A DNA stretch of 38,765 nt from an uncultured Pseudomonadota bacterium. GTDB taxonomy: Bacteria; Bdellovibrionota_B; Oligoflexia; Oligoflexales; CAIMVM01. The stretch spans positions 1 through 38,765 of the forward strand of contig CAIMVM010000163.1 in the NCBI GenBank assembly GCA_903844895.1, in the 5' to 3' direction. This document shows positions 5,071-26,922 of this stretch, in pieces; position 1 is the stretch's first letter; every line of letters begins with the position of its first letter. The position numbers and the translations under genes were made by a program. The notes under the pieces are model-generated. The model searched no databases. It saw nothing but the letters and a program-made list of their open reading frames with translations, and was not told where the DNA came from.

Positions 5071-6533
5071 CTACTGCTTATAAGGCGAAAGCAGCTGACA
5101 CGGACTGGAAGGCATTCCTTGTGGCGGAGGCACTTGAGGATAGCCCATCATGCCAGAATTTGGGCCTATCGGAGCAGAGTTTGCTGGACCCATTCCAGTA
5201 TTGTATTGTGGCTGCCCAGGAACCGGATAAGACGTATAGCTCCCGCCATTTAGACAAGGATAGCCCCCATCTGGATATGGTTCTTTGGAATTTGAGGGAA
5301 TTGGGTAATTTTTTCGAGGGGGGTCATTTTCATAGAATTGCGTGTTTAAAAGGACTCGGGGGTTGGTGGCTAGTTCACCCTGACTCTGAGAGGGAGAACT
5401 TGGAATACAATAGATTTTGCCCTCTGCGCGAAAGTCTTTACTGTTTTCGATGGCCGTGTAACCATCAGCACATGTTGTAATTTTTCCAGATGCCAAACCG
5501 TCCAAAATAGCAAACAAGCCTTTTCTATCATCTTCTTGAATCGTTCCCAATGCAATCAGGTGATTTCCCATAAGAGCATTGGGGTGTCTTTTAAGGGCAG
5601 AGCCTGATGCATCTTCCACATATACATCTATAAGAAAAAACAAATGCCCGATTTCATATATCATAACCCACTTACCCAAAAGACGCTCAAAACGAGGGAC
5701 CTATCCATTATGGTTTTCAGCTTCCTTGCTATTTAACATATAGTTAGGAAGACCAATTGTAATTTCAGAACCCTCTGCATCAACAAAAGCCCGATCCCAA
5801 ACTCCGATATCCAGTTCCTCTGTTGCTAGACGTCTTTTTACAATGTCTCTTAATTTTTTTTGTTCGTTGACATCTTTTTGATCCTCAATCAAAAGCTGAG
5901 CCCAAAGATTTTTGAGTCGTTTTACGAAACTATCATTCACAAGAAAAAGATTCTCTCCAAAAACTTGATGGGCCCTTTGAATCGTCTGCGCATCAGATTT
6001 TGACGTCAAGCCTGTAATGGTAATTCCATTTTTACAACCCAAATTTTCAGCTGCTTTAGAAAGCTGCTCCGCGAGGGGCTTTATGATTTCAAGATATCTA
6101 TTCATGGACTCCTCAAAATTCTTGTGGGGGCCTTCGATGTATGAATTTAGCTGCGCCAAATATGCGGGATCACTTTTTTGACGGATTCTATGGATCACTC
6201 GAATGAGATTTCCAAGGTCGAATCTTATAAACTCAATTTTTGGCCTAGAAGGACCTATCCAAGTAGAATGTTGGGAGGCTACCTCTAGCCAGCTGTAAAG
6301 TCCTTCTCGAAAGTCAGCTTCAAGGAGATCCAAATAAGCCTTACCAACGGGGGCATTCAGATTTTCATTAAAAAGACAAACTTTGAGAGTTGCGTCTGGC
6401 TTATTCAGTAATTCAAAAATCGGCCCTTTAAAACAACTTCCTTCGGCACCGCGTACTTAGCATCAGAGTCTTGAGTATGGGGCTTACATGACCCTAAAGT
6501 AGATAGCATTAAAAAAAGGAAGAAGCCTCGCAT
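5071..6533 (-). pseudogene. Broken lipoprotein gene (one frameshift, one in-frame TAG), possible former metallopeptidase
   Basis: An ATG at 6533 behind GAGGAAA starts a lipoprotein signal peptide (MRGFFLFLMLSTLGSC, lipobox LGSC at 13-16). That frame stops at a TGA at 6405-6407 after 42 residues. Shifting frame anywhere between about 6460 and 6405, for example one missing base in AAAGGGCC near 6424, continues in an open 210-residue frame to a TAG at 5701-5703. The same frame stays open beyond the TAG to 5071, with coherent protein (YEIGHLFF) and a Pro/Gly/Gln-rich tail. Joined, the three parts would give a secreted lipoprotein of roughly 485 residues. The YEIGH motif would be a zinc-type HEIGH site if Tyr were His. 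I do not recognise the family. The frameshift could be a sequencing error; the TAG is harder to explain that way. Confidence 0.6.
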
Positions 6534-6574
6534 CAATTGTTTCCTCTACGAAATTTCTGGTTTAAGTTTATCGA

Positions 6575-26502: not shown

Positions 26503-26616
26503 CAGATTGTGTGAAAGTGAAAAATGTTTTACAAAGTTGTTTCGGTTCGCAAAATAATTTATCTACAAACCCGTGAGGGTCAAATAACAGGGTCAATTTA
26601 ACGAAGGAGATTCACC

Positions 26617-26922
26617 TTGGCTAAGAAAGCAACGAAGAAAGCAGCAACTAAGAAAGTAGCAAAAAAAGCTACAAAAAAAGCTGCAACAAAGAAAAAAGTA
26701 GCAAAAAAAGCAACTAAGAAAGTTGCAAAAAAAGCTACTAAGAAGGCTGCAACTAAGAAGGTAGCAAAAAAAGCTACTAAGAAAGTTGCAACTAAGAAAG
26801 CTGCAACTAAGAAAGTTGCAACTAAGAAAGCTGCAACTAAGAAAGTTGCAAAAAAAGCTACTAAGAAGCGCGCTACTACTAAGAAGAAAGCTGCTGCCTC
26901 TGAAGCTCCAGCAATGGCCTAA
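26617..26922 (+). CDS. Lysine/alanine-repeat histone H1-like DNA-binding protein
   Basis: 101 residues from a TTG start behind AAGGAGA (26604-26610). Almost the whole chain is made of short units of the type KKAATKKVA, KKATKKAAT and KKATKKVAK, ending ASEAPAMA. Such Lys/Ala/Thr repeats are typical of the C-terminal domain of eukaryotic H1 and of bacterial H1-like proteins (HctB-like, AlgP-like), which bind DNA without sequence preference and compact the nucleoid. The protein is very basic, with no aromatic residue or Cys. The coding DNA is itself repetitive and prone to copy-number change. It stands alone between two terminators and faces the end of the peptide-importer operon. Confidence 0.88.
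   Translation: MAKKATKKAATKKVAKKATKKAATKKKVAKKATKKVAKKATKKAATKKVAKKATKKVATKKAATKKVATKKAATKKVAKKATKKRATTKKKAAASEAPAMA
26625..26885 (+). repeat. Degenerate in-frame tandem repeats in the histone-like gene
   Basis: Near-identical units such as GCAACTAAGAAAGTTGCA and GCAAAAAAAGCTACTAAG recur throughout, each in the reading frame. Codon use is limited (GCA/GCT for Ala, AAG/AAA for Lys, ACT/ACA for Thr). This arrangement can gain or lose units by slippage without breaking the frame. Confidence 0.75.

What the first reader, a model, noticed from the sequence alone, without database searches (positions are those of the whole stretch)
5071..6533. Lipoprotein gene inactivated by a frameshift and an in-frame TAG; lesions fit C-to-T changes
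A good Shine-Dalgarno sequence and signal peptide are followed by a frame break near 6424 and a TAG at 5701-5703, with protein-like sequence continuing in the same frame afterwards. TAG would be CAG (Gln) and the TAT of YEIGH would be CAT (His, giving HEIGH) by single C-to-T changes. This suggests a recently decaying exported metallopeptidase-like lipoprotein.
Basis: partly seen in the sequence, partly recalled or inferred. Interest (0 to 1): 0.5.

Follow-up and report, generated by a model that had tools for sequence, protein, structure and literature searches.

The report
Broken lipoprotein protease gene
An environmental bacterium carries what looks like a recently broken gene for an exported, membrane-anchored zinc protease: it has lost its reading frame, gained a stop codon and lost one metal-binding residue, which is ordinary gene decay.

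Summary
On the minus strand a lipobox signal peptide (6533-6486) opens a frame ending at TGA 6407-6405. Protein-like coding resumes in the overlapping -1 frame, stops at TAG 5703-5701 and continues in that frame to 5074. The post-TAG part is clearly related to single-frame lipoproteins of the same order (probably Oligoflexales) with an HExxHxxGxxD zinc site. In 50 of 50 relatives inspected, out of 103 non-self profile matches, the first zinc ligand is His; here it is Tyr. The other nine invariant residues of the post-TAG part are kept. The pre-TAG half resembles the family only modestly. TAG is an ordinary stop here (12 of 29 window genes). No intact copy of this subfamily was found in the held genome. 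T over C at synonymous third positions exceeds all 29 comparison genes, which modestly fits the C-to-T idea, but the residue once at the TAG cannot be inferred. A slippery heptamer lies at the frame break; nothing else found supports programmed frameshifting. Best reading: a young pseudogene. Reads could not be checked, so assembly error remains the main rival.

The parts
6542..6546 (-). Shine-Dalgarno-like GAGGA, 8 nt before the ATG
   Evidence: read; motif recalled, not scored
6486..6533 (-). start codon and signal peptide with lipobox-like LGSC (Cys codon 6488-6486)
   Evidence: the 10 homologues of A1 share a Cys in this region
6408..6456 (-). 49-nt overlap of the Met frame and the -1 frame, in which the frame break lies; contains T_TTA_AAG at 6432-6426 and A_AAG_GGC at 6429-6423; the Met frame ends at TGA 6407-6405
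5704..6417 (-). pre-TAG part (P0003, 238 aa): probable N-terminal half of the protease domain plus a long stretch without match
   Evidence: residues 4-53 align with L004 63-112, a modest match: 7 of 500 shuffles score at least 28 bits
5701..5703 (-). in-frame TAG stop
   Evidence: TAG ends 12 of 29 window genes
5074..5700 (-). post-TAG part (P0001, 209 aa): zinc-site half of the protease domain and a Pro/Gly-rich tail
   Evidence: profile match E 6.4e-13, hhalign probability 97.6
5626..5658 (-). degenerate zinc site YEIGHLFFLID (homologues: HExxHxxGLxD)
   Evidence: 50 of 50 relatives inspected have HExxH
5569..5571 (-). conserved Met after the zinc site, retained
5527..5532 (-). conserved Asp-Asp pair, retained

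Best explanation
This is a pseudogene. It was a gene for an exported lipoprotein with a zinc protease domain (HExxHxxGxxD zinc site, later Met). Shown in the assembled sequence: the frame break, the in-frame TAG, Tyr in place of the first zinc-ligand His, and homology of the post-TAG part to single-frame lipoproteins. Inferred: the protein is no longer made whole, because translation from the ATG with the good ribosome-binding sequence ends after 42 codons and the signal peptide is never joined to the zinc site. Decay would be recent, because protein-like coding and the other family-invariant residues survive.
For: Two frame-destroying lesions of different kinds. Ten homologues in the same order are open frames of 313-494 residues (10 of 12 non-self places; two dropped as unrelated). 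First His is Tyr here and His in 50 of 50 relatives inspected; the nine other invariant post-TAG residues are kept. From the Cys codon to the LKVCL codon is 101 nt across the break, against 34, 34 and 36 codons in L005, L009 and L004 (45 and 52 in L006 and L010), as if both frames once made one N-terminus. Codon signal persists in both halves. TAG is a normal stop here. GC3 is the lowest of 30 genes, and T over C at synonymous sites exceeds 29 of 29, as relaxed selection could give. The held genome has three profile matches at E up to 0.01: this gene and two 1071-residue proteins, of which the one scanned is an M6 protease.
Against: No read data; a 372-contig assembly, so one or both lesions could be errors. 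The pre-TAG part has only modest similarity to the family: hhalign against A1 gives probability 2.1% (E 0.023), the best BLAST score is 28.5 bits with 7 of 500 shuffles at 28 or more, the read-through protein aligns with A1 only in its post-TAG part, and P0003 gave no match in 55 other genomes. Relatives were found by a profile that rewards the HExxH motif, so members without it could be under-counted. AT-rich third positions also occur in weakly expressed or acquired genes. The genome is about 95.6% complete, so an intact copy could be missing.
Confidence: 0.78

Rival explanations
1. The frame break and the stop are assembly or sequencing errors; the real gene is open and encodes either a zinc-site-altered pseudoprotease (if the Tyr is real) or a working protease (if that too is an error).
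For: 372-contig assembly without reads. The break lies in short runs, T4 A3 G3.
Against: Two independent errors of different kinds are needed for an open pseudoprotease, and more for a working enzyme (Tyr for His, Phe at the Gly position). Long Pfam-matched genes in the same window (tRNA-synt_1b, PdxA, UvrA-like, acetyl-CoA synthetase-like, CheA-like) are open.
Confidence: 0.15
2. Programmed -1 frameshifting at T_TTA_AAG (6432-6426) joins the two frames, and the TAG is read through, giving a full-length lipoprotein.
For: The shift needed is exactly -1 and the heptamer lies in the Met frame inside the 49-nt overlap, with AAGGA six bases upstream. In-frame X_XXY_YYZ heptamers occur at 77 of 10,180 codon positions in 29 window genes, so about 0.12 are expected in the overlap; two overlapping ones are there. 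TTTAAAG itself occurs at 5 of 10,180.
Against: No unusual downstream structure (z -0.02, 95 of 200 shuffles fold at least as well; pseudoknots not tested). The ten aligned homologues are single-frame. A second recoding event at the TAG would be needed, and the product would lack a zinc ligand. The heptamer was noticed after the fact.
Confidence: 0.03
3. Two separate functional genes, one for each part.
For: Each part is an open frame of over 200 codons with a possible TTG start. Only the post-TAG part has clear homologues.
Against: The post-TAG ORF holds at most 14 residues before the zinc motif; the 50 relatives have 90 or more. It has no signal peptide. The coding frame is the same on both sides of the TAG. 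No homologue confined to either part was found in the searches made.
Confidence: 0.03
4. TAG is reassigned to an amino acid in this organism.
For: Coding continues in frame after the TAG.
Against: TAG ends 12 of 29 window genes, including the tRNA-synt_1b gene; the frame break would remain.
Confidence: 0.01

Closest known systems
Lipoprotein-like HExxHxxGLxD proteases of Oligoflexales (L004, L005, L009, L012, L013 and others)
   Same: Cys in the lipobox region, zinc-site region, Met and Asp-Asp pair; the post-TAG part aligns over about 70-120 residues at 30-32% identity with L005 and L004
   Different: They are single open frames with His as first zinc ligand; the window copy is broken, has Tyr, and has a Pro/Gly-rich tail where L004 has a ricin-B-like lectin tail
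Snapalysin (M7) and M6 (immune inhibitor A) proteases
   Same: HExxHxxGxxD-type zinc site in the homologues; snapalysins also keep a Met after the third ligand (PMC3890501, abstract and passages seen; M6 motif recalled)
   Different: The four homologues scanned reach no NCBIfam cut-off for snapalysin or M6. The Met lies 18-19 residues after the third ligand in L004 and the window against about ten in snapalysins
Matrixin, Pfam PF00413 (Peptidase_M10)
   Same: 6 of 10 aligned homologues match weakly, best E 1.9e-4
   Different: L004 scores 21.8 against a cut-off of 24; third ligand Asp, not His; the window parts give no match to it

Membership tests
Oligoflexales HExxHxxGLxD lipoprotein protease family (A1) | Profile similarity in the zinc-site region | tested here: met
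   E 6.4e-13; hhalign probability 97.6
Oligoflexales HExxHxxGLxD lipoprotein protease family (A1) | Lipobox signal peptide | tested here: met
   MRGFFLFLMLSTLGSC at 6533-6486, but in the other frame; judged by eye, no predictor run
Oligoflexales HExxHxxGLxD lipoprotein protease family (A1) | Similarity of the N-terminal half | tested here: inconclusive
   right place and spacing, modest score
Oligoflexales HExxHxxGLxD lipoprotein protease family (A1) | HExxH with His as first zinc ligand | tested here: not met
   Tyr here; His in 50 of 50 relatives inspected. Filed as a broken relative, not a working member
Oligoflexales HExxHxxGLxD lipoprotein protease family (A1) | Single uninterrupted reading frame | tested here: not met
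   frame break and TAG
Pfam PF00413 Matrixin | Score above the gathering cut-off | tested here: not met
   no match for the window parts; L004 21.8 against 24
Snapalysin / M6 | Score above the NCBIfam cut-offs | tested here: not met
   window parts 0 families; four homologues below cut-off
Programmed -1 frameshift gene | Slippery heptamer in the zero frame at the junction | tested here: met
   T_TTA_AAG 6432-6426; about 0.12 such heptamers expected in the overlap
Programmed -1 frameshift gene | Downstream stimulatory structure | tested here: not met
   z -0.02 for 6345-6425; pseudoknots not tested
Programmed -1 frameshift gene | Two-frame arrangement conserved in relatives | tested here: not met
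   ten aligned homologues are single ORFs; no close orthologue was found to test

The most novel reading that the evidence does not exclude
The gene is still expressed whole by two recoding events (-1 frameshift at T_TTA_AAG and TAG readthrough) and makes a zinc-site-altered pseudoprotease lipoprotein with a non-catalytic role.
Probability: 0.03. Interest if true: 0.65.

Novelty: new member of a known kind. Interest (0 to 1): 0.15.

Why it matters
It is an example of decay of an exported protease gene in a lineage with no held relative in its genus or family, and it leads to a family of lipoprotein proteases that the Pfam and NCBIfam models barely reach. If the lesions were assembly errors, the Tyr in place of the first zinc ligand would still mark it as a pseudoprotease candidate. 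For annotation, the two ORFs are best recorded as one broken gene.

Tried and rejected
Leads that gave nothing: P0003 against genome contigs (39 stretches matched a pattern, none confirmed), plasmids (no match) and the PDB (8 weak hits, best E 0.055); P0001 against the PDB (none). The A1 profile against the PDB gave 269 matches; the best 60, those shown, are mostly ankyrin proteins that match the homologue tails and say nothing about the window gene. P0001 in class and phylum reached the same number of genomes, 58, and gave no new homologue. Gene order: 29 window proteins against five homologue neighbourhoods gave three weak hits (25-31% identity, partial length) and no shared order. Two of the 12 non-self places were dropped as unrelated: L007 (tail-only match across a TGA) and L011 (a different protein). 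L058, L071 and L072, flagged with stops inside the match, were looked at as possible further broken members; in the frames printed the stops lie after the protease domain, so I do not call them broken.

Considered and rejected: two genes, TAG reassignment, programmed recoding (see rivals). The 29 comparison genes were chosen as open frames, so their openness is no control for assembly quality; only the Pfam-matched ones bear on it. Structure prediction was not tried: by its stated rule I judged that it would not take homologues from the genome search, and a single sequence often folds poorly. The 50 relatives are those of A1 and of the stretches I fetched, out of 103 non-self matches (two of which are second stretches of a gene already counted); all matches with E up to 3.4e-6 are in, plus four weaker ones; the other weaker ones were not inspected.

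Full report
What is there. The window is contig C163 of a 4.23 Mb, 372-contig genome, estimated completeness 95.6%. The relatives returned include none of the same genus or family. Contigs of four relatives with homologues have the same lengths as records titled 'Oligoflexales bacterium' or 'uncultured Oligoflexales bacterium', and a fifth the same length as one titled 'Bdellovibrio sp.'; the order is probably Oligoflexales, an inference. On the minus strand an ATG at 6533-6531 follows GAGGA by 8 nt and begins MRGFFLFLMLSTLGSC, a lipoprotein-like signal peptide. That frame ends at TGA 6407-6405 after 42 codons. The -1 frame is open from 6456 through 5704, meets TAG at 5703-5701 and is open again to 5074, with a terminal TAG at 5073-5071.

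Is it coding? With codon frequencies from 29 other window ORFs, the pre-TAG part scores 0.283 and the post-TAG part 0.183 bits per codon in the stated frame, against a mean of 0.239 (sd 0.039, minimum 0.150) for the 29; the other two frames score negative. The leader before the break scores 0.08 over 35 codons.

What is it? P0001 has no Pfam match at E up to 1; P0003 has one at E 0.13, below its cut-off. Neither has an NCBIfam match. P0001 found 12 non-self places in 42 other genomes of the order at E up to 1, the best at 2.3e-4. Ten of these are homologues; two were dropped as unrelated. The ten are open frames of 313-494 residues. Their alignment A1 has 12 invariant columns: C (lipobox region), W, H, E, G, H, L, D, Y, M, D, D. 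The pattern HExxHxxGxxD is that of zinc proteases with Asp as third ligand, and snapalysins (M7) of this kind keep a Met after it, according to PMC3890501 (abstract and passages seen); there the Met is about ten residues on, here 18-19. 6 of 10 homologues match Pfam Matrixin weakly (best E 1.9e-4). A profile of A1, which does not contain the window, finds the window at E 6.4e-13, and hhalign aligns P0001 with A1 at probability 97.6.

The zinc site. The A1 profile gave 104 matches at E up to 0.01 in 43 genomes, one of them the window. I inspected 50 relatives: the ten of A1 and 40 in 39 further fetched stretches. They range from close family members to weak zincin matches, including the two M6-like proteins of the own genome. 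50 of 50 have HExxH. The profile favours this motif, so members that lost it may be missed. The window has YEIGHLFFLID: Tyr for the first His, and Phe where the relatives have mostly Gly, in two Ala and in two Thr. The nine other invariant residues of the post-TAG part are kept.

One gene or two? The 50 relatives have 90 to 414 residues between the preceding stop, or the edge of the stretch, and the HExxH in one frame; the post-TAG ORF has at most 14. The pre-TAG part aligns with L004 residues 63-112, where it should, but weakly: 28.5 bits, with 7 of 500 shuffles at or above 28; hhalign against A1 gives probability 2.1%, E 0.023, at the right place; and the protein read through the TAG as X aligns with A1 only in its post-TAG part. 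From the Cys codon to the LKVCL codon is 101 nt here, against 34, 34 and 36 codons in L005, L009 and L004, and 45 and 52 codons in L006 and L010. Signal peptide, pre-TAG and post-TAG parts therefore most probably formed one lipoprotein gene; the post-TAG link is firm, the pre-TAG link is inferred.

C-to-T? At synonymous T/C third positions the gene has 170 T against 144 expected (z 3.4; the 29 other genes have sd 1.4 and none is as high). For A/G pairs z is 1.0, with 8 of 29 as high. GC3 is 0.351, below all 29. This leans towards C-to-T on the coding strand but can also come from weak expression or acquisition. The TAG lies in an unconserved stretch, so its former residue cannot be told, and the Phe needs at least two base changes. 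'Lesions fit C-to-T' is compatible with the data, not demonstrated.

Recoding. T_TTA_AAG lies in the Met frame at 6432-6426, overlapped by A_AAG_GGC, and the shift needed is -1. Such heptamers occur at 77 of 10,180 codon positions in the 29 genes, about 0.12 expected in the 49-nt overlap. No unusual structure follows (z -0.02). The ten aligned homologues have no frame break, and TAG readthrough would also be needed. TAG ends 12 of 29 window genes. I give recoding 3%.

Backup copies. The held genome has three matches to the A1 profile: this gene and two 1071-residue proteins, 91% identical to each other; the one scanned is an M6 (immune inhibitor A type) protease. No intact copy of this subfamily was found at E up to 0.01.

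Literature. Two searches of the paper library (240 papers: 984; ten listed each, listings seen) showed no report of this gene or of such lipoprotein proteases in Oligoflexales; only the listed papers were looked at, so this is no claim of absence from print.

Verdict. A young pseudogene of an exported zinc-protease lipoprotein: ordinary decay, low interest. The main uncertainty is the absence of read data.

Noticed in passing
G002:C1 and C5 (L008, L014, L015, L046, L049-L057, L059, L066, L068, L071): One Oligoflexales genome has 18 matches to this protease profile, one of them a second stretch of the same ORF. Of nine of its proteins scanned, eight show ankyrin repeats behind the protease domain at E up to 0.01, seven of them above a Pfam cut-off: an expanded family of ankyrin-tailed, probably exported proteases.
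   Followed up: partly
L092, L093, L096, L097, L100, L102, L103, L104: 8 of 15 named loci encoding relatives of the homologue L004 are from Poribacteria assemblies, so the family or its wider kin reaches beyond the order.
   Followed up: no
L081:14-3226 and L082:4285-7497: Two 1071-residue proteins, 91% identical, on separate contigs of the window's genome; the one scanned is an M6-type protease. Recent duplicates or mixed strains.
   Followed up: partly
26602-26919: A Lys/Ala-rich repeat ORF (KKAATKKVAKKAT...) on the plus strand, resembling histone H1-like tails (recalled likeness).
   Followed up: no
L004 and probably L013: Two of ten aligned homologues match ricin-B-like lectin models; L004 is shown there, L013 is my assignment from its repeated tail.
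   Followed up: no
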